Assembly (NCBI RefSeq): GCF_015207255.1
Contig: NZ_JADEXG010000030.1
Coordinates: 1-57,066 of the forward strand
DNA length: 57,066 bases
From: Vasconcelosia minhoensis LEGE 07310
Lineage (GTDB): Bacteria > Cyanobacteriota > Cyanobacteriia > Phormidesmidales > Phormidesmidaceae
Direction of reading: 5' to 3'
Shown piece by piece: positions 4,123 through 14,198 of this stretch; position 1 is the stretch's first letter; each line of letters starts with the position of its first letter. Below the pieces are notes generated by a model. It worked only from the letters and a program-made list of their open reading frames with translations. It did no database searches and was not told where the DNA came from. Both the position numbers and the translations under genes were made by a program.

Positions 4123-4316
4123 TTATCCAAGATTGCCTTTTGATACTTTGCAGTTAGCTGTTTTGTCTTTTTGAGGTCTTTTTTGCTGTAAGCTCCGACT
4201 ACGGCAATCAGTTCTGATGTCTTAGCGTTAATTTTAGCTTGACCGCCGCGCTTATATATGTGGACGTGTATCGGTTTGTGGTCGTTGGGATTTCTACCCA
4301 ACCCCATATTGAGCAT
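4101..4316 (-). CDS. DUF4160 domain-containing protein, probably N-terminally truncated
   Basis: The segment NDHKPIHVHIYKRGGQAKIN and the C-terminal KKTKQLTAKYQKAILDKWEE match the DUF4160 family. Family members normally have ~20 more N-terminal residues forming the first beta strands. Here the frame instead runs back into the end of hsdR, and the nearest Met (4316) gives an unusual MLNMGLG leader. The gene overlaps the 3' end of hsdR by 23 bp and the DUF2442 start by 22 bp. It could be a shortened but functional partner of DUF2442, or a remnant fused to hsdR sequence by recombination. Confidence 0.6.
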   Translation of the reverse strand: MLNMGLGRNPNDHKPIHVHIYKRGGQAKINAKTSELIAVVGAYSKKDLKKTKQLTAKYQKAILDKWEELYG

Positions 4317-7300
4317 CCACTGTCTCGTTGAAGGAGTGGACGATCGCGATGATGCTCCCGGCTTCCTCGTTTGCAAAAACGCCGCTGAGGCCGTTGCTGT
4401 GCAGGTCGGTGAAGGGAGGATCGTAAAGCTGGCCGGGGTCCATGGTGCCGTTTTGGGTGAGGTAGTCGATCAGGGTTTCGACAAAGCGGATTTGGTTGGC
4501 GCTGAAGCGGCTGGCTTCCAGGTATGTTGAGAAGGCTTGCTTGGCGGCCTGGCGGTCTAGCCCCACCAGCTTGCGGATAAACTGCTTGAGGCTGAGATCT
4601 CTACCGTAGACGGCTTCGAAGCGATCGCGGCTTTCGGCGGCCTCGGGGGTGAAAAGCAGGGTCTCCAGCTCGTCTAGATCGGTTTCCGTCAGCGGCAGAT
4701 TGCGCTTGAGCTTGGCAATGGTGACGTGATTTTCCCGATCCCGAATATAGGCTTCTACTTTCTTGCGATACTGATAGGGGCTGAAGCCGGTCTGGTAGGT
4801 GGGGACATCGACCTCGGCGACCCGGCCCATCTCATCGGCAAAGTGGGTATAGACGATCTGCTGCTGCTGCCGGTCGATAAAGCTGACCAGGTGGCGCAGC
4901 GTCACCCGTAGGGTTTCGACCATGCCTACCGTCACGTTTTCCCACCAGCTTTCGGCCTGGGCTTCCTGGATTAGCGGAAGCTGAGCCTTGACCATGGGGA
5001 TGTCCTGCTTCTGCTCTAGCTGGGTGAGGGTATCGCGCAGCTTGTCTCGCAGGCGGATAAAGGCTTTGCTTTGTTCCAGAATAGCCAGCTGTAGCTGCAG
5101 GCAGAGCAGGTCAAACTGCTTGGCCAGATGGTTTTCATTGGGCAGGCCGTTGGGCAGGCTGGCCAGATGGGTCGCGATCGCGCTCACATCCTCTTCCGAC
5201 AGCTCTTCCCAGCGATCGCGCTGGGCAAAGGTCTCCACCGCCTGCAGGTGCCGCCGCACCAGTACGTTCTGGCGGGGCATCGTCTCCACATGCTGATGCA
5301 GGTCATCGAGCAGGGCATCGCGCAGGTCTGGCGCGGCGGCTGGCCCGGTCAGCAGCTGGCTCAGCCGCAGCCGATGCTGCACCAGGCGGCTGGTCAGGCT
5401 TTGCGGCAGGGGCTGACTGGCCTCGGGGATGTTTTGGCTGAAATATTCAAAGTTGCTACACAGGTCGAAGACGAGAAAATGTGTCTTGGGCTGGTCGGGG
5501 CCGAATAGGTGCTCACACAGGCGGGTGCCGCGCCCGATCATCTGGTTGAACTTGACTCGGGAGTAGACCGGCTTGAAGAAGACCAGGTTCACCACTTCGG
5601 GCACATCGACGCCGGTGTCGAGCATGTCTACGGAGACGGCCAGGGTGGGCTGCTTGGGCGCTTCGGCGAAGTCATCCAGCAGGCTCTGGGCGTAGGCGCT
5701 CTGGCTGTCGATCACCTGGGCAAACTGGCCCCGGTAGTGGGGATAGCTGTGGTCGAAGCGTTCGACGATGAACTCAGCGTGGGCATGGTTGCGGGCGAAG
5801 ATGATGGTTTTGCCCAGGCGATCGCCGCTGTCTACTTTCAGGCCCCGCTCCATCAGCAGCTTCAGCGCCTGATCGACGGTATCGATGTTGAAAAGCCACT
5901 GGTTCAGCGCGGCGGCGTTGACCTGATCGGGAATTTCCCCCGTCTCTGCGTCGCGGAATTTCTCTTCATACTCGGCCTGCTCCTCGGGGGAAAGGTCGCT
6001 GTAGCGGACGCCGGTGCGCAGAAATTTGAAGGGAACACTGACGCCGCGCGGCGGCACCAGGTAGCCATCCTGCACCGCATCGTCCAGTTCGTAGGCGAAG
6101 GTGGGGACGCCCTGCTGAAGCTCAAAAATCTGGTAGGTGTCGCGGTCTACTTCGGCTCTGGGGGTGGCGGTCAGGCCCACCAGCAGGCTGTCAAAGTAGT
6201 CGAAGATGAACCCATATTTTTGATAGATCGAGCGGTGCGCCTCATCGACGATAATCAGGTCGAAATGGCCCAGCCCGAAAACCCGCTGCCCGCCGTCACG
6301 GCTGATGGCGTTGTACATCGTGGGATAGGTGGAGAGGACGACGTTGGCGCTGTCGGCGGCTTTGTCTTGGGTCAGGTCCAGCGGGGTGACGGTGGGCAGA
6401 TGGGTCTTAAAGGCGCGGTAGGCCTGGGTGAGCAGGGCGGTGCGGTCGGCCAAAAACAGGACGCGGCTGACCCAGTTAGCCTTTTTTAGCAGATCGACCA
6501 GGGCGATCGCGGTTCTGGTCTTGCCGGTGCCGGTGGCCATCACCAGCAGGGCCTTGCGTTCTTTGCGATCGCACAGGCTCTCGGTCACCCGGCGGAGGGC
6601 TTCGCGCTGATAGCTGCGGTTGACGATCGCTTCATTGATCGGCACCTGGGCGGGCGGCTGGCGGTGGCTGCGGCGAAAGATCAGCCGCTCTAGCTCGCTT
6701 TTTTTCAGAAAGCCCGAAATGGCGCGGGGCGGATATTGGCGGTCGTCCCAGATCCAGGTTTCGTAGCCGTTGGTGTAGAAGATCACCGGGCGCTGGTTAA
6801 ACTGCTGCTCCAGGCAGTCGGCGTAGAGTTTGGCCTGGTGTTTGCCCTGGGTGGGGTCGGCAGTACTGCGTTTGGCTTCGACCAGGGCCAGAGGTTTGCC
6901 GTCATCGCCCCACAGCACGTAGTCTACTTTGCCGCTGCCGGAGGCATTGGGCATGCCCTGCACCGGATATTCAGTGGCATTGGGCGAGCGGATGTCCCAA
7001 CCGGCTTCCTGGAGCAGCACGTCGATTAGGTAGCGGCGGGTGTCGGCTTCGTGGTAGTCGTGGCTGTCGGGCAGGGCTTCGTTTTGCTGCTTTAGCGCGG
7101 TGATTTGGGCTTTGAGGGTTTCCAGCTCGGCTTCGGTGCGCTGGCGGCGGTCTGCTTCAATCCGGCGCTTCTTGTCGGCCTGGGAAAGCTCTTGCTCCAG
7201 GGTTTGCAGCTGCTCCCGGCTGATGGCAGGCTCGGCAGCGGCGGCCTGGGGGATGCGGCTGCGGTCGAACTGGAGGGCGGGCAGGGCTTTGCCGTTGGGG

Positions 7301-7674
7301 GCGTAGTAGCGGCAGAGCCAGTAGAGGACGTGGAAGAGTTCCTGCACCAGCTGCAGGGCTTCTGGCTCGGGAACTTCGCTGGCGTTATGGACAGCGAGGT
7401 TGCCTTTTTTATGGATAGCGCGGATTTTGGGGAAGAGGCCAGGCTTAAGGTTATTTTTGAAGGTTTGCTCGTGGATCAGGGCACCCAGGCCGGTGTCGTA
7501 GGGGAGGCGCAGGTAGGGATCGTTTTCGTAGAGCCAGAGGACGGCCTGCTCTAGGGCGAAGCGGGTGTAGAAGCAGCAGGCCCGGGGAGAGGTGACGGCC
7601 AGACGCTCGGCTTCGACGGCGTGGGCGTAAAGCTTTGGGAAGGCGGGCTTGAGGAAGTCAAAGTTGGAGGGCAT
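4294..7674 (-). CDS. hsdR: Type I restriction enzyme, R subunit (HsdR, EcoEI-like)
   Basis: The 1126-residue motor and nuclease subunit of the type I restriction-modification complex, which translocates and cuts DNA lacking the host methylation. Domains in order: an N-terminal DUF4145 region (about 15-120), a coiled coil (about 155-200), the HsdR nuclease domain with D251 and the E-A-K motif at 266-268 (LALVEAKRS), a superfamily-2 helicase with Walker A ATGTGKT (380-386), DEAH box (IIVDEAHRS) and LTATP, the helicase C domain ending MIGRGTRL, and an EcoEI-type C-terminal domain. The frame is intact. The gene is downstream of hsdS but separated by XisI, a small antitoxin-like gene and a repeat, so it may have its own promoter. 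Confidence 0.95.
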   Translation of the reverse strand: MPSNFDFLKPAFPKLYAHAVEAERLAVTSPRACCFYTRFALEQAVLWLYENDPYLRLPYDTGLGALIHEQTFKNNLKPGLFPKIRAIHKKGNLAVHNASEVPEPEALQLVQELFHVLYWLCRYYAPNGKALPALQFDRSRIPQAAAAEPAISREQLQTLEQELSQADKKRRIEADRRQRTEAELETLKAQITALKQQNEALPDSHDYHEADTRRYLIDVLLQEAGWDIRSPNATEYPVQGMPNASGSGKVDYVLWGDDGKPLALVEAKRSTADPTQGKHQAKLYADCLEQQFNQRPVIFYTNGYETWIWDDRQYPPRAISGFLKKSELERLIFRRSHRQPPAQVPINEAIVNRSYQREALRRVTESLCDRKERKALLVMATGTGKTRTAIALVDLLKKANWVSRVLFLADRTALLTQAYRAFKTHLPTVTPLDLTQDKAADSANVVLSTYPTMYNAISRDGGQRVFGLGHFDLIIVDEAHRSIYQKYGFIFDYFDSLLVGLTATPRAEVDRDTYQIFELQQGVPTFAYELDDAVQDGYLVPPRGVSVPFKFLRTGVRYSDLSPEEQAEYEEKFRDAETGEIPDQVNAAALNQWLFNIDTVDQALKLLMERGLKVDSGDRLGKTIIFARNHAHAEFIVERFDHSYPHYRGQFAQVIDSQSAYAQSLLDDFAEAPKQPTLAVSVDMLDTGVDVPEVVNLVFFKPVYSRVKFNQMIGRGTRLCEHLFGPDQPKTHFLVFDLCSNFEYFSQNIPEASQPLPQSLTSRLVQHRLRLSQLLTGPAAAPDLRDALLDDLHQHVETMPRQNVLVRRHLQAVETFAQRDRWEELSEEDVSAIATHLASLPNGLPNENHLAKQFDLLCLQLQLAILEQSKAFIRLRDKLRDTLTQLEQKQDIPMVKAQLPLIQEAQAESWWENVTVGMVETLRVTLRHLVSFIDRQQQQIVYTHFADEMGRVAEVDVPTYQTGFSPYQYRKKVEAYIRDRENHVTIAKLKRNLPLTETDLDELETLLFTPEAAESRDRFEAVYGRDLSLKQFIRKLVGLDRQAAKQAFSTYLEASRFSANQIRFVETLIDYLTQNGTMDPGQLYDPPFTDLHSNGLSGVFANEEAGSIIAIVHSFNETVDAQYGVG

Positions 7675-7778: not shown

Positions 7779-7862
7779 CGGATCCCCCCTAGCCCCCCTT
7801 AGAAAGGGGGGGATAAGCTTTCAAAGTCCCCCTTCTCAAGGGGGATTTAGGGGGATCCTAAG
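7779..7862. repeat. C/G-rich palindromic interspersed repeat
   Basis: An ~80-bp unit of nested inverted repeats: GGATCC-like ends, inner stems CCCCCCTTagaaAGGGGGG and CCCCCTTctcAAGGGGG, and a central CTTTGAAAG-like core. This is the type of dispersed palindromic repeat seen in many cyanobacterial intergenic regions. It separates hsdR from the upstream small gene. A shorter related piece is at 28291-28322. Confidence 0.75.
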
Positions 7863-7872
7863 GTGTAAAGCT

Positions 7873-8148
7873 TCATAACCGATACCTCTCTAAACGACCT
7901 CTCAGGGAAAGGCCGTATTTTTGGTTTTGCTCGGCAATGAAGTCGTCAAGGCTGGAGAATTGGCCCTGCTCAAAGTTGTTCAGGCCGCGTTGAATACCGT
8001 TGAGGGTTTCAAAGAAGTCGGCATCACTGAGGCTGAGGCCCCAGGTCAAAACGGTAACAGCAATTTGGCCGATGTCTTGCCCGGTAGTTTCGGCGCGCTG
8101 GCGAAGCAGGGCTTCGATTTGAGGGGGGAGGTCAAGGGTGATAGACAT
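7873..8148 (-). CDS. Small antitoxin-like protein (hypothetical)
   Basis: A 91-residue acidic protein starting SITLDLPPQIEALLRQRAE. This N-terminus resembles the short strand plus helix of ribbon-helix-helix antitoxins used in cyanobacterial toxin-antitoxin or nuclease pairs. The C-terminus (DDFIAEQNQKYGLSLRGRLE) is variable in such genes. I chose the Met at 8148 rather than 8175 because the conserved-looking part begins there. It follows xisI by 13 bp and is likely co-transcribed with it. No catalytic motif is visible. Confidence 0.55.
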   Translation of the reverse strand: MSITLDLPPQIEALLRQRAETTGQDIGQIAVTVLTWGLSLSDADFFETLNGIQRGLNNFEQGQFSSLDDFIAEQNQKYGLSLRGRLERYRL

Positions 8149-8161
8149 TGATGTTCTGTAA

Positions 8162-8500
8162 TTACGAGACGGCAAAATCGGTAATTTTTCGGCGTTCTGG
8201 AGATTTGTAGGCGAGGACGATTTGGTCTTTGGGAATATCGAGGTCGGTCAGTTCGTTGGCAATGCCGGTTTCGGTGCCATCGTGCTGAATCCAAACTTTT
8301 TCACCGATGATGTCGATGTGGATCAGCGTACCGTAGATGCGGCGGTCGTTTTGCCAGCCGGTTTCGATTAGCAGGTAGTGGTGATTGTCTTTGTCGATCG
8401 CGAGGTAGGCGTCAGCATCGGGGTCTGGGCCTAAGAATTCCAGGAAGTCTTGCAGGACCTGAATGATCGTTTGTTGCAGGATTAGGACGGGGGTAGCCAT
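8162..8500 (-). CDS. XisI-family protein
   Basis: A 112-residue protein of the XisI family, first noted beside the fdxN-element excision gene in heterocyst formers. The signature is plain: NHHYLLIETGWQNDRRIYGT, then LIHIDI, KVWIQHDGTETGIA and a DFAV ending. XisI normally sits directly after xisH, a nuclease-like partner. No xisH is present here; hsdS is upstream and an antitoxin-like gene downstream. XisI members are numerous in cyanobacteria without excision elements, so a role in element excision should not be assumed. Confidence 0.85.
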   Translation of the reverse strand: MATPVLILQQTIIQVLQDFLEFLGPDPDADAYLAIDKDNHHYLLIETGWQNDRRIYGTLIHIDIIGEKVWIQHDGTETGIANELTDLDIPKDQIVLAYKSPERRKITDFAVS

Positions 8501-8556: not shown

Positions 8557-9753
8557 TTAGAGGTCGCCTTGGAAGGCGCGCTGGAGCAGAGAGTTGAAAA
8601 AGTTATCTGATTGCGTCAAGTGTTCTTTTAAACGAGAACTAACAAATCGGAGCTTTTTAGCAAAATTGAGATAATCGATTTGGAGCTGACGCGGAGGTAA
8701 GAGTGCGGGGAAACTCTTTAATTGCGTTTTATTGATTGTGGCTATTCCCGTCGTTTGTTTGGCTGCCCTTAGAAAAAATCGCTTTCCTCGTTCGCTGCCA
8801 ATGTGTGCTGAAAGGTATCCAGGCTCAGCAATAAAAACATCTGGTCTAACACAAAAAATATGGTTTTGATGAATGCAGGTTTGAACCTCTCCATTCCAAA
8901 TTGCACCTCTGCCCAACTTATCAGGATCACCACCTTCGGTTAGCAATACATCACCAGTCTTCAAAGCATATCTATCAATATCTGACGGTAGAACACTGAT
9001 CTCTTTTATCTCAGATAGATCTAGGTATCCGTCTTGTACGTTCGCAACTCTCATGTAGGGAACTGATACCGTCTTGGACGAGTCAACCTTCTTGCCTTTG
9101 GCTATCCCCGATTGAATGAGACAAAAATCTTCTAACGGTGCTACTTTCCATCCTTTTGGGTTAGTCACTGGATCGCCGAACATTTCTAAGAATGCTGAGC
9201 GTAGCAGGTCTTCGGTAAGCGCGATCGCACTCTGACGTTTCCGGCGCACAGCATCCGCTTTATCCAGAATGGCCGCAATCCGACGCTGCTCATCAAGAGG
9301 CGGGAGAGGAATAAAGTATTTCTTTACGATTGAGTCAGAAACGGCAGGATAACTAGCACCTGTACTCTGCCGTGTCATGTCTTCGACGAAGTAAGGACTA
9401 CGAACCCAATAATACAAATATCGAGAATCTAACTGATTGGTTTTAGGTCTCAGAACAGTGAAACCAGTCGAAGCGGTAGCACTGTCGATTGAATAGTTAA
9501 CTTGAGCAACTGCATTTAGATTAGGTCTGACTGTTGAAACTAAAACGTCGCCATCTTTGACTAATTGTCTTGCTCGGCTAGGTGCTTCATGAGCGTAGAT
9601 TTCACTGACTTCTTCTATTTGCTTTGATTCTCTATTAACTGAAGCGATATCTATATACGCCAAAGACCGATTAGTTTCACATTTACGAGGATCCCATTTA
9701 CTTACGGGAGAAACAAGCTGTCCTATTGACACAGTCTCATATGCCCATCTCAT
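8557..9753 (-). CDS. hsdS: Type I restriction enzyme, S (specificity) subunit
   Basis: The 398-residue DNA-recognition subunit. It has two target-recognition domains (about 1-150 and 195-360), each followed by a conserved helical spacer. The first spacer carries IPLPPLDEQRRIAAILDKAD (about 150-170), and the protein ends NSLLQRAFQGDL, the usual end of the second repeat. The start ATG overlaps a stop codon (ATGA) belonging to a degenerate copy of the hsdM 3' end at 9750-9794. This implies hsdS once lay directly after hsdM in a 4-bp-overlap operon. Today 3 kb of other genes separate them. Confidence 0.93.
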   Translation of the reverse strand: MRWAYETVSIGQLVSPVSKWDPRKCETNRSLAYIDIASVNRESKQIEEVSEIYAHEAPSRARQLVKDGDVLVSTVRPNLNAVAQVNYSIDSATASTGFTVLRPKTNQLDSRYLYYWVRSPYFVEDMTRQSTGASYPAVSDSIVKKYFIPLPPLDEQRRIAAILDKADAVRRKRQSAIALTEDLLRSAFLEMFGDPVTNPKGWKVAPLEDFCLIQSGIAKGKKVDSSKTVSVPYMRVANVQDGYLDLSEIKEISVLPSDIDRYALKTGDVLLTEGGDPDKLGRGAIWNGEVQTCIHQNHIFCVRPDVFIAEPGYLSAHIGSERGKRFFLRAAKQTTGIATINKTQLKSFPALLPPRQLQIDYLNFAKKLRFVSSRLKEHLTQSDNFFNSLLQRAFQGDL

Positions 9754-9794
9754 CTAAGCAATTCCTCCAACGCATCCTAATCTGTCCAAATCTT
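9750..9794 (-). pseudogene. Remnant of hsdM 3' end (scar 1) at the hsdS start
   Basis: On the minus strand this stretch reads K-I-W-T-D-stop-D-A-L-E-E-L-L-R-stop, aligning codon for codon with the true hsdM end (E-I-R-Q-D-L-D-E-L-E-R-M-L-G-stop). By hand 30 of 45 bases are identical. An internal TAG shows decay. Its final TGA overlaps the hsdS ATG, the arrangement expected at an intact hsdM-hsdS junction. Confidence 0.65.
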
Positions 9795-9869
9795 ATTTTT
9801 GACCAAAATGGCCTACTATCGGGCTTGTTCGCCTTGCCAAAATTATTACTCTATAAGAGATACACCTAC

Positions 9870-10103
9870 TTAACCTGCTAATCTGAGTTCGGCTTGAATC
9901 GGCAGCTCTAACGGCATACTCGAATTTAGGCGAGTTGAGAAGAAGAGAATTTCTAGATTTTCGATCGCCCCCGAATCAGGATTCAAGCGGGCAATGATTT
10001 CATCACCGATCTCATCAGACTCCTGATCAGAATAAGGAGCACAGGTGTCGATGTAAAGAATATCGCCTAGTTTGTCGTAGCGAAATGTCAGGTTTTTGTC
10101 CAT
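9870..10103 (-). CDS. DUF2283 domain-containing protein
   Basis: A ~77-residue protein with the DUF2283 pattern: LTFRYDKLGDILYIDTC followed by EIIARLNPDSGAIENLEIL. These small proteins are common beside nucleases and toxin-antitoxin genes; function is unknown. The Met at 10103 places the beta-rich core at the N-terminus; an upstream Met at 10118 adds five residues. It forms a tandem pair with another DUF2283 gene just upstream and is the last cargo gene before hsdS. Confidence 0.75.
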   Translation of the reverse strand: MDKNLTFRYDKLGDILYIDTCAPYSDQESDEIGDEIIARLNPDSGAIENLEILFFSTRLNSSMPLELPIQAELRLAG

Positions 10104-10148
10104 TCCAAATCTGTTCAAAACTTATTATCGAGTATCGAAAACATTCTG

Positions 10149-10361
10149 TTAGACGGCAAAAGTTTCAAAGGCAACGCGAACGGGTTCTGACGAGGCAGGC
10201 ATAAAATTGAGCTTTTCAAATCCAATCACTTTCCCTTGGGCGTCTTTCATCAATACCACCTCATCCCCCGTTTCTTCGACTTCAAACTCATCTTCAGGAC
10301 TACCAAACCAAACCGTTAGCGTGTTGCCAATCCGATCATGAAAAACCTTTACTTGTGCCAT
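10149..10361 (-). CDS. DUF2283 domain-containing protein (second copy)
   Basis: A 70-residue DUF2283-type protein: AQVKVFHDRIGNTLTVWFG, then VVLMKDAQGKVIGFEKLNF. It is only distantly similar to the neighbouring DUF2283 protein, so the pair is not a recent duplication. Position 10361 was chosen because the domain begins at once after it; an upstream Met at 10406 would add an atypical leader. It lies 46 bp from the other DUF2283 gene and 67 bp from the Uma2 pair. Confidence 0.7.
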   Translation of the reverse strand: MAQVKVFHDRIGNTLTVWFGSPEDEFEVEETGDEVVLMKDAQGKVIGFEKLNFMPASSEPVRVAFETFAV

Positions 10362-10427
10362 AATTCTTTTCTTCTGTTCGCCAGGCAGCATAGGCCAGCG
10401 CCTCATAGATATATCGTTTTAAGACGC

Positions 10428-10997
10428 CTAGCGTCCCTGCAAAATCTGTGACGGGGTGAGCGTCAAAACGCCAAACAGCAGTGAGGCAATTGGGGTATCT
10501 CCCTCATAGACGGTTTCCTCATACAGCCCTTCCACCCACTCCAGCAGCGTCACCTTTTGCCGCATCGGGTCCACAATCCAATATTCCGCAATCCCCCGGG
10601 CGGCATACTCAGCCCGCTTATAGCGATAATCTCGACTCTCCTGTCTCGGACTCACCACCTCAACCACCAGCAGCGGCGGCGGCATGTCTGGCATCACCGT
10701 CGAGCGGCTGGCCCCTTCCAGCGCGGTTGCCAAATCTTCAGATAGCACCATCACATCCGGGAAGCGCGTCGTTGCCCCTGCACCACTGACTACAATCTCA
10801 GTCTTCATCGTCAAACGGTGCGGTGGAATGCCCCGCTGAGCAAAATAGATCACCAAAAACATGGCGATCCGGCGGTTCAAATCGCTTTCAGGCGGCATTT
10901 CGACTAGCTCCCCATTCACCAGCTCGTATTGAGTCTCTGTGCCAGGGTCATAGTTGAGGTACGCTTGCAGCGTCATGGGTTTAGATGCCAGAGTCAT
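10428..10997 (-). CDS. Uma2-family endonuclease (tandem copy A)
   Basis: A 189-residue Uma2 (DUF820) protein with the restriction-endonuclease-like fold. The active-site elements are visible: TTRFPDVMVL (Asp), [20 protein letters not shown] (Glu, Lys region), and the IAEYWIVDP strand. It is nearly identical to copy B (11049-11618) except for a short divergent patch around residues 40-70. The duplication includes the upstream leader up to about 11040, making a ~621-bp tandem unit. The target and physiological role of Uma2 proteins are not known. Confidence 0.88.
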   Translation of the reverse strand: MTLASKPMTLQAYLNYDPGTETQYELVNGELVEMPPESDLNRRIAMFLVIYFAQRGIPPHRLTMKTEIVVSGAGATTRFPDVMVLSEDLATALEGASRSTVMPDMPPPLLVVEVVSPRQESRDYRYKRAEYAARGIAEYWIVDPMRQKVTLLEWVEGLYEETVYEGDTPIASLLFGVLTLTPSQILQGR

Positions 10998-11048
10998 CGG
11001 AGCTACGCCTCTATCAACTGAGCAGAGCTGATCCTCATTTTAAGACGC

Positions 11049-11618
11049 CTAGCGTCCCTGCAAAATCTGTGCAGGGGTGAGCGTCAAAACGCCAAACAGC
11101 GGTGAGGCAATTGGGTTATCTCCCTCATAGACGGTTTCCTCATACAGCCCTTCCACCCACTCCAGCAGCGTCACCTTTTGCCGCATCGGGTCCACGATCC
11201 AATATTCCGCAATCCCCCGGGCGGCATACTCAGCCCGCTTGTAGCGATAATCTCGGCTCTCCTGTCTTGGGCTCACCACCTCAACCACCAGCAGCGGCGG
11301 CGGCATCTCTGGCATCACCGTCGAGCGGCTGGCCCCTTCCAGCGCGGTTGCCAAATCTTCAGATAGCACCATCACATCCGGAAAGCGCGTCGTTGCCCCT
11401 GCACTGCTGACTACAATCTCGGTTCCCATTCTGACCCGATAGCTAGGAATTCCCTGGTTTAGGAAAAAGGCAAATAATAGCGATGCAATTCGCTGATTTA
11501 GATCGCTCTCAGGCGGCATTTCAACTAGCTCCCCATTCACCAGCTCGTATTGAGTCTCTGTGCCAGGGTCATAGTCGAGGTACGCTTGCAGCGTCATGGG
11601 TTTAGATGCCAGAGTCAT
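11049..11618 (-). CDS. Uma2-family endonuclease (tandem copy B)
   Basis: A 189-residue paralogue of copy A with the same catalytic elements ([14 protein letters not shown]) and the same C-terminus TLTPAQILQGR. Residues 44-66 differ strongly (QRIASLLFAFFLNQGIPSYR against RRIAMFLVIYFAQRGIPPHR in A), while the flanks are nearly base-identical. It begins shortly after a second copy of the hsdM 3' end (11656-11700). A nested mini-frame in the leader (MKISSAQLIEA) is also duplicated in front of copy A. Confidence 0.88.
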   Translation of the reverse strand: MTLASKPMTLQAYLDYDPGTETQYELVNGELVEMPPESDLNQRIASLLFAFFLNQGIPSYRVRMGTEIVVSSAGATTRFPDVMVLSEDLATALEGASRSTVMPEMPPPLLVVEVVSPRQESRDYRYKRAEYAARGIAEYWIVDPMRQKVTLLEWVEGLYEETVYEGDNPIASPLFGVLTLTPAQILQGR

Positions 11619-11655
11619 CGGAGCTACGCCTCTATCAACTGAGCAGAGCTGATCT

Positions 11656-11715
11656 TCATCCTAGCAACCCCTCCAGCTCATCCAGATCCTGCCGAATCTT
11701 AATCAGAATTTTCAT
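11656..11715 (-). pseudogene. Copy of hsdM 3' end as a 19-codon mini-ORF (scar 2)
   Basis: The minus strand reads MKILIKIRQDLDELEGLLG then TGA. The last 15 codons (11656-11700) match the end of hsdM in 39 of 45 bases by hand alignment. The ATG overlaps the stop of the C39-like gene (ATGA), so the fragment could still be translated. It marks the boundary between the peptidase-like cargo and the Uma2 cargo. Confidence 0.72.
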
Positions 11716-12143
11716 TCAGCAATCATAATCGTCAAACCATTTGTTAGCCGAAAAGCAGCCTCAAAATGAGATCGATTTACCTGACGTTTTCCTACCAATG
11801 GATCTAACACTGTCACATCATTCTCATCGGTTTCTCCAACCACTAATGAATGAATCCCCCTGACTCGATCAATTGGCATCAGCCCAACGTACACAATGGG
11901 ATACAACCCCTGCGCTACCAGGTCATCCAACTGCACCATCGTCAGGTTTGCCTTACGCGCTTTTACAAAACCTACCTGCCGCGCCGCCTCAACCGCTTGC
12001 AAAGCCTCCGTTCCAAAGATTGTGCAATCGCACAATCGGCGCAACTCAGACTCGGAAATGACAGTCCCCGCCTCCGCTAAAACCATTCGCAAGCAAGCCG
12101 GTACACAAGAGTCAGGCGTTTCCTGCGGATAAAAAGGCGGCAT
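11712..12143 (-). CDS. C39-like cysteine peptidase domain protein
   Basis: A 143-residue single-domain protein with papain-like C39 features: QETPDSCVPACLRMVLA near the N-terminus (Q7, C13), GIHSLVVGE with H98, and VLDPL with D114, giving a complete Q-C-H-D set. In ABC exporters such domains cut leader peptides; stand-alone forms are of uncertain use. No transporter or peptide precursor is nearby. The gene overlaps the upstream unknown gene by 32 bp, so they form a translationally coupled pair inserted between hsdM and hsdS. Confidence 0.72.
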   Translation of the reverse strand: MPPFYPQETPDSCVPACLRMVLAEAGTVISESELRRLCDCTIFGTEALQAVEAARQVGFVKARKANLTMVQLDDLVAQGLYPIVYVGLMPIDRVRGIHSLVVGETDENDVTVLDPLVGKRQVNRSHFEAAFRLTNGLTIMIAE

Positions 12144-12528
12144 TGATCGCGTCTTCCCGTTCCCTATAGCACGCCATCCCTGCCGACTTCATGACCGTTG
12201 GTTGAGTAGCTGAAATAATTCCCCGCGAAAACGCACTCACCAAAACCTCGCCCACCTCGCCCACGACGCCAATATGTGGATAAGCCAGCCCCACCGCTAC
12301 TGACCAGATATCGCCCCCGGCAATCAATCGCGGCTCCAGCGCCGTAAACCGATCTGAAAGCACCCGCAGCAGCCAATCATTCACAACCGTTTGCGCGATC
12401 GCTGCCGAAATCGGTAACGCCTCAGACTCAGGCGTAGCCAGCCATCCCGTCAGCAGTCCCTGAACCGCCGCTAGCCGCTCCGGAGGCAGGGTTGCTAATT
12501 GTTCACAGGTCACATCGGCTGAATCCAT
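12112..12528 (-). CDS. Hypothetical protein paired with the C39-like peptidase
   Basis: A 138-residue protein I do not recognise. It is mainly helical and acidic in its first 70 residues (PPERLAAVQGLLTGWLATPE), has no signal peptide or membrane segment, and a small glycine-rich stretch VAVGLAYPHIGVVGEVGE. Its 3' end overlaps the peptidase-like gene by 32 bp. The tight coupling suggests a substrate, inhibitor or antitoxin-like partner of that protein, but this is inference only. Confidence 0.6.
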   Translation of the reverse strand: MDSADVTCEQLATLPPERLAAVQGLLTGWLATPESEALPISAAIAQTVVNDWLLRVLSDRFTALEPRLIAGGDIWSVAVGLAYPHIGVVGEVGEVLVSAFSRGIISATQPTVMKSAGMACYREREDAINAAFLSAGNA

Positions 12529-12642
12529 CCTGGCCTCCCTATCACTGCAACGGCCAAATGCGCTAATAAGATCATACTCGCTCAGCCTACGCTAGCGCTT
12601 TCTGCCCACTCGGCAGCAACAGCTAATCTTAGTCCAGCTCAA

Positions 12643-12688
12643 ATCGCGGCGCAGCGCGTCATAGCATCGCGGCGCAGCGCGTCATAGC
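12643..12688. repeat. Two exact tandem copies of a 23-bp unit
   Basis: ATCGCGGCGCAGCGCGTCATAGC occurs twice head to tail (12643-12665 and 12666-12688) between hsdM and the first cargo gene. It contains GC-rich inverted symmetry. The remainder of the 12529-12713 gap shows nothing clear. Confidence 0.8.
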
Positions 12689-12713
12689 TTGAAACCGAGT
12701 TGGAGCCTGCCAC

Positions 12714-14198
12714 TCACCCCAGCATCCGCTCCAACTCATCCAGATCCTGCCGAATCTCGCCCTCCAGCGCCCGCAGCTTCTGCAAGATCACCTTCGGCGG
12801 GTCGTACTCCACTTCCTCATACTCAATTTCCTTATAGCGGTTAATCGACAGGTCATAGGCATTCGCCGTAATCTCCGCCTTGGGCACCCAAAACGCTTTG
12901 CCAGTCCGGTCGGTATCCTGCTTCGGATCGCGGGCCTTCCAGCGCTTTAGCAGGTCAGGGATATCGTTTTCTTCAACCGGCTGGCGCTTATCATCCAGCG
13001 AAAACCCATCCGCCGCCATGTCATAAAACCAAACCGTATCCGTCCCATCCTGACTCACCCCGATTTTGGTAAACGCCAGAATCGCCGTAGACACCCCCGC
13101 ATAGGGCTTAAACACCCCCGACGGCATCGAAATCACCCCGTCTAGCTTGTGCTCCTCGATCAGCATCCGCCGCAGCTCCTTATGCGCTTTGCTGCTGCCA
13201 AACAGCACCCCGTCCGGCACAATCACCGCTGCCCGGCCGCCTTTCTTCAGCAGGCGCAAAAACAGGGCCATAAACAGCAGCTCCGTCTTCGTCGTTTTGA
13301 TTACCTTGGCCAGATCCTTGGCAATGGTCGATTTCTCCACCGACCCCTTAAACGGCGGATTCGCCAGCACCACCGTAAACGCCTCCTCCACCCCCGCATG
13401 GTCCTCCGACAGCGAATCGCGCGCCTCAATCTTGGGCTGCTCAATGCCGTGCAGCATCAGGTTCATGCTGCCAATCCGCAGCATCGTGGCGTCAAAGTCA
13501 AAGCCGTGGAACATGCCCTGGTTGAAATGCGCCCGGTTGCCAGCGGCATTCAGCACCTGGTTGCCCTGACTATCCTTCAGGCCGCGCAGATATTCCGCCG
13601 CCGCCACCAAAAAGCCACCGGTGCCGCAGGCCGGGTCGCAGATGATGTCGTGGGGGCCGGGTGCCAGCAGCTCGACCATCATTTTGATAATGTGCCGGGG
13701 CGTGCGGAACTGGCCATTGGTGCCCGCCGTGCTCAGCTTCGAGAGCATGTACTCGTAGAGGTCACCCTTGGTATCCCGGTCTTCCATTGGGATCTGGTCG
13801 ATCTGGGCGACCACGCTGGCCAGCAGCGCCGGAGAGCCGATCAGAAAGACGGCATCTTGCATGTGGCGGGCATAGGGGCTATCGGCCACCTCACCGCCCA
13901 GGGTTTTAATAAACGGAAACGCCTGATCCCGAACCGTTCGCAGCATCGCCTCGGCATCGTCCAGATGCTTAAACTGCGACCAGCGGCACGGCTGGCTGTC
14001 CGCCGAAAAGACCGGCTGCTCCATCGGGCGGCCCAGCTGCTGAGCCTTAGATTCCTTCGCCAGCTCCAGGTCATCCAGCCGCTTGATAAACAGCAGGTAA
14101 GAAATCTGCTCAATCACCGACAGGGGATTGCTGATGCCGTTATTCCAAAACGTCGTCCAGAGGCGATCGACCTTCGACTTCAGTTCCCCTGTAATCAT
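12714..14198 (-). CDS. hsdM: Type I restriction-modification methyltransferase, M subunit
   Basis: A 494-residue N6-adenine DNA methyltransferase. It has an N-terminal helical HsdM_N domain (about 1-140), the SAM-binding motif I CDPACGTGGFLVAA (187-200), and the catalytic motif IV LANPPFKG (N280-P-P-F283). The tail IRQDLDELERMLG is a short coiled-coil end. It methylates the site chosen by HsdS and also joins the restriction complex. The frame is intact. Two extra copies of its last ~45 bases occur downstream. It is the first gene of the operon, with hsdS 3 kb away. Confidence 0.95.
   Translation of the reverse strand: MITGELKSKVDRLWTTFWNNGISNPLSVIEQISYLLFIKRLDDLELAKESKAQQLGRPMEQPVFSADSQPCRWSQFKHLDDAEAMLRTVRDQAFPFIKTLGGEVADSPYARHMQDAVFLIGSPALLASVVAQIDQIPMEDRDTKGDLYEYMLSKLSTAGTNGQFRTPRHIIKMMVELLAPGPHDIICDPACGTGGFLVAAAEYLRGLKDSQGNQVLNAAGNRAHFNQGMFHGFDFDATMLRIGSMNLMLHGIEQPKIEARDSLSEDHAGVEEAFTVVLANPPFKGSVEKSTIAKDLAKVIKTTKTELLFMALFLRLLKKGGRAAVIVPDGVLFGSSKAHKELRRMLIEEHKLDGVISMPSGVFKPYAGVSTAILAFTKIGVSQDGTDTVWFYDMAADGFSLDDKRQPVEENDIPDLLKRWKARDPKQDTDRTGKAFWVPKAEITANAYDLSINRYKEIEYEEVEYDPPKVILQKLRALEGEIRQDLDELERMLG

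What the first reader, a model, noticed from the sequence alone, without database searches (positions are those of the whole stretch)
9750..12758. Three copies of the hsdM 3' end bracket cargo modules between hsdM and hsdS
The true hsdM end (12714-12758) is repeated at 11656-11700 (39/45 bases identical) and 9750-9794 (30/45, overlapping the hsdS ATG as ATGA). Each cargo block (peptidase-like pair; Uma2 pair plus two DUF2283) lies between consecutive copies. The simplest reading is that cargo was inserted into the hsdM-hsdS junction at least twice, each event bringing or duplicating the hsdM tail. The copies differ in age: the one at hsdS is most decayed. It suggests an integration hot spot or a recombination scheme for loading defence genes into type I loci.
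Basis: partly seen in the sequence, partly recalled or inferred. Interest (0 to 1): 0.78.

Follow-up and report, generated by a model that had tools for sequence, protein, structure and literature searches.

The report
Copied hsdM tails serve hsdS
In this and many other cyanobacteria, genes slipped between two overlapping genes of a DNA-defence system come with a copied piece of the first gene's end; the copy still provides the ribosome-loading start signal of the second gene and, in Microcystis, forms the constant flank beside which that gene's specificity domains are swapped.

Summary
A profile built only from 13 other cyanobacterial hsdM 3' ends finds exactly three sites in the 57-kb window, those named (E 1e-11, 2e-11, 8e-9; next 0.94). 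It is also general: about 16 independent hsdM loci in two hsdM lineages carry hsdM-tail copies behind cargo genes, one to three per locus. The hsdS-proximal copy ends exactly on the ATGA that overlaps the hsdS start, and all 19 examined keep a Shine-Dalgarno motif 7-11 nt from the ATG. Most copies form a mini-ORF that stops on the next start codon. Best reading: hsdS initiation is written inside the hsdM 3' end, so cargo can enter this junction only if that end is duplicated; the copy becomes a portable translation leader. Copies travel with hsdS or cargo, occur at ectopic sites, and in Microcystis form the constant 5' block of hsdS genes whose TRD1 is exchanged between an hsdM-linked and an hsdM-free site. 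No recombinase and no fixed duplication length were found, so 'integration hot spot' is only partly supported; roughly half of cargo-bearing loci lack a recognisable copy. Function is inferred from sequence, not tested.

The parts
12714..14198 (-). hsdM (494 aa), type I modification subunit
   Evidence: Pfam N6_Mtase, HsdM_N; PADLOC MTase_I 1e-190
12714..12758 (-). original hsdM 3' end (tail), codes IRQDLDELERMLG*
   Evidence: R2 model E 1.3e-11
12112..12528 (-). cargo module A, gene 1: unknown 138-aa protein
   Evidence: no Pfam match; homologues sit beside the C39 gene in 5 other loci
11712..12143 (-). cargo module A, gene 2: C39-like peptidase, 143 aa
   Evidence: Pfam PF03412 1.8e-14
11656..11715 (-). 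mini-ORF MKILIKIRQDLDELEGLLG*; its ATG overlaps the C39 stop (ATGA 11712-11715)
   Evidence: sequence
11656..11700 (-). inner tail copy, 39/45 to hsdM; GGAGG kept
11049..11618 (-). cargo module B: Uma2 protein 1
   Evidence: Pfam PF05685 2e-34; PADLOC candidate PDC-S03
10428..10997 (-). cargo module B: Uma2 protein 2 (tandem, mosaic duplicate)
   Evidence: Pfam PF05685; repeat D1
10149..10406 (-). cargo module B: DUF2283
   Evidence: Pfam PF10049 3e-7
9870..10118 (-). cargo module B: DUF2283
   Evidence: Pfam PF10049 4e-5
9750..9794 (-). hsdS-proximal tail copy, 30/45 to hsdM; GGAGG 10 nt before the hsdS ATG; internal in-frame TAG
8557..9753 (-). hsdS (398 aa), start codon overlapping the tail copy as ATGA
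   Evidence: Pfam Methylase_S; PADLOC Specificity_I
4294..7674 (-). hsdR (1126 aa)
   Evidence: PADLOC REase_I 7e-177

Best explanation
In these cyanobacterial type I systems hsdM and hsdS overlap as ATGA, and the ribosome-binding site and start context of hsdS lie inside the last ~45 nt of hsdM. Cargo (toxin-antitoxin-like genes, Uma2, nucleases, peptidases) can settle between them without harming either gene only if the hsdM 3' end is duplicated (or hsdS gains another start signal), so a surviving insertion commonly leaves a tail copy in front of the gene that follows. The copy next to hsdS is kept as a portable translation leader: a Shine-Dalgarno motif and the ATGA, usually as the end of a short ORF whose stop overlaps the hsdS start, so hsdS translation can be coupled to the mini-ORF instead of to hsdM. 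Because it is a constant block flush against TRD1, it also serves as the 5' homology arm when hsdS (or cargo plus hsdS) is exchanged by recombination, and so it travels with those genes. Shown from sequence: recurrence, exact end at the hsdS start, SD and frame retention, loss of the ATGA from many hsdM genes after insertion, hsdS/TRD1 exchange beside the copy. Inferred: that the mini-ORF is translated and couples hsdS; that exchange is ordinary homologous recombination; how each first duplication arose.
For: Empty sites overlap as NTGA. In cargo loci the copy before hsdS ends exactly at the hsdS start: L039, L040, L042, L043, L045, L047, L048, L050, L061, L115, L121 and window; L041, L117 (L117 after re-choosing its start), L167-L169, L172; L225, L235. 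All 19 hsdS-proximal copies scanned keep an SD motif 7-11 nt from the ATG, while one internal copy (L045) and two ectopic copies have lost it. The last 9 nt are more conserved in copies than in hsdM itself (0.91 v 0.82), the first 9 less (0.59 v 0.72); 24 of 25 dereplicated copies are open in the hsdM frame. hsdM ends in ATGA in 16/20 empty but 10/30 cargo loci, Fisher p 0.0016. In Microcystis, 5 hsdM-linked and 6 hsdM-free hsdS genes share a leader block (95-98% over up to 152 nt) that in most pairs ends at the tail's last base, plus central and distal blocks; TRD1 is shared across sites in L061/L230 and L041/L171/L226. L168/L169, two loci of one genome, share most of the cargo at 93-100%; identity falls to 0.78 across the tail and about 0.5 in hsdS. 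L042 carries an in-situ ~115-nt duplicate, 50/51 to its own hsdM.
Against: About 14 of 30 cargo loci have no recognisable copy (e.g. L034, L044, L051, L053, L056, L057, L118, L125), so the copy is not obligatory. The mini-ORF is broken in the window's own hsdS copy (internal TAG) and by a frameshift in L041, L229 and L230, so coupling through a translated mini-ORF cannot be universal; the SD alone may suffice. hsdM tails evolve as coding sequence, so part of the frame retention in copies is inherited rather than selected. Several copies were used to build model R1; the independent test is R2. The empty-site ATGA count is partly circular, since empty sites were recognised by a start overlap.
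Confidence: 0.74

Rival explanations
1. The copies are footprints of a cargo-integration mechanism: the hsdM 3' end is an attachment site, and each element brings or duplicates it on entry, for example circles of tail plus cargo entering by Campbell-type crossover within the tail.
For: One copy per module in several loci (window 2; L045 2; L115 2; L121 3; L164 2). Tail plus cargo units at ectopic sites without hsdM: L181 (MNT/HEPN), L178 (Uma2). L042 is a recent in-situ duplication. The window's inner copy is nearest to its own hsdM, 39/45.
Against: No integrase or transposase among the window cargo. Duplicated length varies from ~45 to ~200 nt, with no conserved outer ends. Most copies are closer to copies elsewhere than to their own hsdM. 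Many cargo loci have no copy.
Confidence: 0.3
2. The copies are remnants of imported hsdS: a donor fragment carrying the hsdM 3' end plus hsdS joined behind resident cargo or a broken hsdS, and the tail persists mainly because hsdS needs a start region.
For: L235 has an hsdS N-terminal fragment followed by ~200 nt of hsdM 3' end and then a complete hsdS. In G298 the tail diverges together with hsdS while the cargo is 93-100% alike over most of its length. Ectopic Microcystis hsdS genes carry the same leader.
Against: L042's copy is its own hsdM (44/45 against 39/45 for the next best), and inner copies (window, L121, L164) are followed by cargo, not hsdS. In L235 the fragment is nearest to its own hsdM.
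Confidence: 0.35
3. The mini-ORF peptide, a free copy of the HsdM C-terminal helix, acts on HsdS assembly or activity.
For: Nearly all copies are open in the hsdM frame. Structural models place the HsdM C-terminal helical region beside the HsdS helices (PMC3510504).
Against: The frame is broken in the window's hsdS copy and in some Microcystis copies while the SD is kept; peptides can be as short as 13 aa (L164, L172).
Confidence: 0.07
4. Chance or composition: similar RBS-rich coding ends without common descent.
For: The tails are short and G-rich (sequence).
Against: E-values 1e-11 to 8e-9 from an independent model with no other site in 57 kb; recurrence in about 16 loci at the exact same position.
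Confidence: 0.01

Closest known systems
Translational coupling at the hsdM-hsdS overlap (EcoKI; PMC3510504)
   Same: hsdM 3' end overlaps the hsdS start and the genes are read in different frames; the paper states they are translationally coupled.
   Different: Here cargo separates the genes and a copy of the hsdM end carries the overlap; no detached copy is described in the passages read.
Integron attI1 short ORFs (ORF-11, ORF-17, ORF-18; PMC8876359)
   Same: A short ORF at the cassette boundary with its own start signals boosts translation of the next gene by coupling; the peptide sequence matters little.
   Different: No integrase and no attC; the short ORF derives from the end of a resident gene and is duplicated with modules.
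SpnIV tvr and duplicated-hsdS shuffling loci (PMC6265443, PMC7394358)
   Same: hsdS/TRD exchange by direct or inverted repeats; at tvr, toxin-antitoxin homologues sit between hsdM and hsdR.
   Different: tvr has a tyrosine recombinase; here no recombinase was found, and the 5' repeat is the hsdM 3' end itself.
PADLOC phage-defence candidates found by guilt-by-embedding (PMC10855318)
   Same: Window Uma2 and the Microcystis nucleotidyltransferase match candidate families PDC-S03 and PDC-S09.
   Different: Those lists describe cargo genes, not how the overlapping junction is kept working after insertion.

Membership tests
Type I restriction-modification locus | hsdR, hsdM and hsdS genes in one cluster | tested here: met
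   4294-7674, 12714-14198, 8557-9753
Translationally coupled gene pair | stop/start overlap with an SD inside the upstream reading frame | tested here: met
   ATGA overlap and SD at hsdS-proximal copies (the upstream frame is interrupted in the window's own hsdS copy)
Translationally coupled gene pair | downstream expression depends on upstream translation | not testable with these tools
   needs a reporter assay or ribosome profiling
Integron or cassette array | integrase gene | tested here: not met
   no integrase among the ORFs between hsdM and hsdS in the window; the rest of the genome was not searched for one
Integron or cassette array | conserved attC-like folded site at each module end | not tested
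   modules share only the tail; no structure search was run
Transposon with target-site duplication | fixed-length direct repeats and a transposase | tested here: not met
   duplicate length ~45 to ~200 nt; no transposase in window cargo
Phase-variable hsdS shufflon (ivr/tvr type) | locus-encoded site-specific recombinase | tested here: not met
   none among the ORFs between hsdM and hsdS; the remaining ORFs near the locus were only read by eye
Phase-variable hsdS shufflon (ivr/tvr type) | several hsdS variants sharing exchangeable TRDs | tested here: inconclusive
   met across Microcystis genomes; in the window's genome only one tail-linked hsdS was found

The most novel reading that the evidence does not exclude
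The hsdM tail is the exchange unit of a recombinase-free cassette system: one ~45-nt sequence is at once protein C-terminus, translation start of the next gene and homology arm, so defence and toxin modules and hsdS variants can be added, removed and swapped at the junction (and at ectopic hsdS sites) while every order stays translatable.
Probability: 0.3. Interest if true: 0.82.

Novelty: new variant of a known kind. Interest (0 to 1): 0.64.

Why it matters
Genes embedded in type I operons are now used to predict new defence systems, yet how an overlapping, coupled gene pair tolerates insertion is rarely addressed. The tail copies give a concrete answer, mark insertion events and perhaps their order, point to cargo and relocated hsdS genes that annotation misses (a relocated leader is a searchable tag), and link cargo loading to the same sequence beside which hsdS specificity is swapped. 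The model is directly testable with a two-gene reporter.

Tried and rejected
Chance similarity: rejected with shuffles and an independent model. Copies as parts of unrelated genes: rejected, they follow the hsdM frame and the hsdM lineage (lineage-B copies in L121 and L235 resemble lineage-B tails). Assembly artefact: unlikely, seen in many assemblies including a single-contig genome (L225). Fixed-length target-site duplication: rejected. A clean Microcystis deletion of cargo between two tails (L061 to L041): not claimed, because the L041 leader shares a base change with the ectopic L171 leader and may have arrived with that hsdS. Codon-position counts in copies look coding-like (51, 32, 67) but the comparison includes coding tails, so it is weak. 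Two family searches failed on coordinates and were repeated.
Full report
CHECK. hsdM (12714-14198, minus) is separated from hsdS (8557-9753) by 2960 bases of cargo. The hsdM 3' end recurs at 11656-11700 (39/45) and 9750-9794 (30/45); shuffles of the downstream sequence reached at most 27/45. To avoid circularity I built a sequence-only model from 13 hsdM tails of other genomes, leaving out the window and all copies. With filters off it finds only these three sites in the 57 kb (E 1.3e-11, 1.6e-11, 8.3e-9; next 0.94). The genome holds no further copy detected at E 0.001.

LOCAL ANATOMY. Module A is an unknown 138-aa protein plus a C39-like peptidase; module B is two tandem Uma2 proteins and two DUF2283 proteins. 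The inner copy closes a 19-aa mini-ORF (11656-11715) that starts on the peptidase stop as ATGA. The outer copy has an internal in-frame TAG but keeps GGAGG 10 nt before the hsdS ATG. Module A's two genes form a pair that is found elsewhere, including a second copy in this genome (G000:C150), away from hsdM and without a tail, so it is an independent module that was inserted here.

GENERALITY. I collected hsdM loci from named genomes and from whole-genome sets. In the lineages closest to the window the empty junction is an overlap of hsdM stop and hsdS start. Among loci with cargo, tail copies ending exactly at the hsdS start were found in L039/L040/L041/L061/L225 (Microcystis), L042, L043, L045, L047, L048, L050, L115, L117, L121, L167, L168, L169, L172 and L235 (the L117 start was re-chosen by me); L164 has two further copies but its contig ends before hsdS can be confirmed. 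Some loci have two or three copies, one per module (L045, L115, L121, L164). L121 and L235 belong to a second hsdM lineage and their copies resemble tails of that lineage. About 14 of 30 cargo-bearing loci show no recognisable copy. Cargo is diverse: nucleotidyltransferase/HEPN, HicA/HicB, BrnT-like, DUF433, DUF559, papain-fold toxin, YhgA-like, PBECR2-like, DUF4258-like (HEPN by eye, and several of these matches lie below Pfam's curated cut-off).

FUNCTION OF THE COPY. All 19 hsdS-proximal copies scanned carry an SD motif 7-11 nt before the hsdS ATG; one internal copy (L045) and two ectopic copies have lost it. Relative to hsdM tails, the copies are better conserved at their last 9 positions and worse at their first 9. 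Once cargo is present, hsdM often abandons the ATGA ending (10/30 against 16/20 at empty sites, p 0.0016). These are the marks expected if the duty of starting hsdS has moved from hsdM to the copy. Most copies are open in the hsdM frame and form mini-ORFs of about 13 to 25 aa, some starting on the preceding gene's stop (window; the HicB-linked L045/L048/L050 group). In EcoKI, hsdM-hsdS translation is coupled (PMC3510504); short ORFs at integron attI1 sites do the same for cassettes (PMC8876359). Coupling here is inferred.

MOVEMENT. (i) L042 is a young case: about 115 nt of its own hsdM end is duplicated (50/51 over the last 51 nt) and the cargo gene itself begins on hsdM's ATGA. (ii) The hsdS-proximal copies of L043, L045 and L048 (different assemblies of Xenococcaceae/Myxosarcina) are 43-44/45 alike but only 29-31/45 like their own hsdM, so the tail does not simply derive from the neighbouring hsdM. 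(iii) In genome G298 two loci share most of the cargo at 93-100%, while the tail is 0.78 and hsdS about 0.5 identical. (iv) Microcystis genomes carry a second, hsdM-free hsdS at a constant site beside a NUDIX gene; it bears the same leader. Between 5 hsdM-linked and 6 hsdM-free genes the constant blocks are leader, central and distal regions, with the leader block ending at, or within a few bases of, the tail's last base in nearly all pairs that differ in TRD1; L061/L230 and L041/L171/L226 share TRD1 across the two sites. (v) Tail plus MNT/HEPN (L181) and tail plus Uma2 (L178) lie at sites without hsdM. (vi) L235 holds an hsdS N-terminal fragment, ~200 nt of hsdM end, then a full hsdS, a likely scar of hsdS import.

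CONCLUSION. The tail copies are hsdM ends duplicated when cargo enters the junction (or when hsdS is imported) and kept because hsdS starts inside them; they double as constant flanks for exchange. That insertion is targeted by a dedicated mechanism is not shown: there is no recombinase and no fixed duplication size. The relative share of cargo insertion and hsdS import in generating the copies is open. For the window, the inner copy is most like its own hsdM and the outer copy most like tails of other genomes, which fits an older or foreign cargo-B/hsdS block and a later entry of module A next to hsdM; with 45 nt this order is only suggestive.

LITERATURE. Overlap and coupling of hsdM-hsdS, hsdS shuffling and embedded defence genes are known; ten full-text searches returned no paper describing hsdM-tail copies. 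The library is open-access only, so absence is weak evidence.

Noticed in passing
window 10414-11334: The two tandem Uma2 genes share 5' leaders and long near-identical stretches (300 nt at 96%) but differ in the middle, as if partly homogenised by gene conversion; the duplicated leader begins right at an ATGA in both.
   Followed up: partly
window 12643-12688: Perfect tandem repeat of 23 nt (ATCGCGGCGCAGCGCGTCATAGC twice) in the gap between hsdM and module A.
   Followed up: no
window 7780-7858: 31-nt imperfect inverted repeat (GGATCCCCCCTAGCCCCCC...) between hsdR and the small genes downstream of hsdS; similar GATCCCCC-type repeats occur beside tail copies in L164, L043 and Microcystis loci.
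   Followed up: no
window 8162-8500: An XisI-family gene and a 100-aa ORF (7873-8175) lie between hsdS and hsdR, so extra genes also sit in the hsdS-hsdR gap, there without tail copies.
   Followed up: partly
L226-L230, L171: Six Microcystis genomes carry an hsdS without hsdM near a NUDIX gene, with the hsdM-tail leader; in G400 (L227) it is the only tail match in the genome.
   Followed up: yes
L131 (G002:C5): hsdM is split in two pieces about 7 kb apart (residues 1-294 and 291-494), suggesting a large insertion inside hsdM.
   Followed up: no
L173 (G217:C14): Decayed locus: an hsdM fragment is fused in frame to a Uma2 gene, followed by a tail copy and a frameshifted hsdS start.
   Followed up: partly
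L042:6638-7576, L055, L179: Cargo directly on the hsdM stop is a YhgA/Rpn-like nuclease-family gene (Pfam Transposase_31 in L042); L042 is also the freshest tail duplication. L055 and L179 were judged by eye only.
   Followed up: partly
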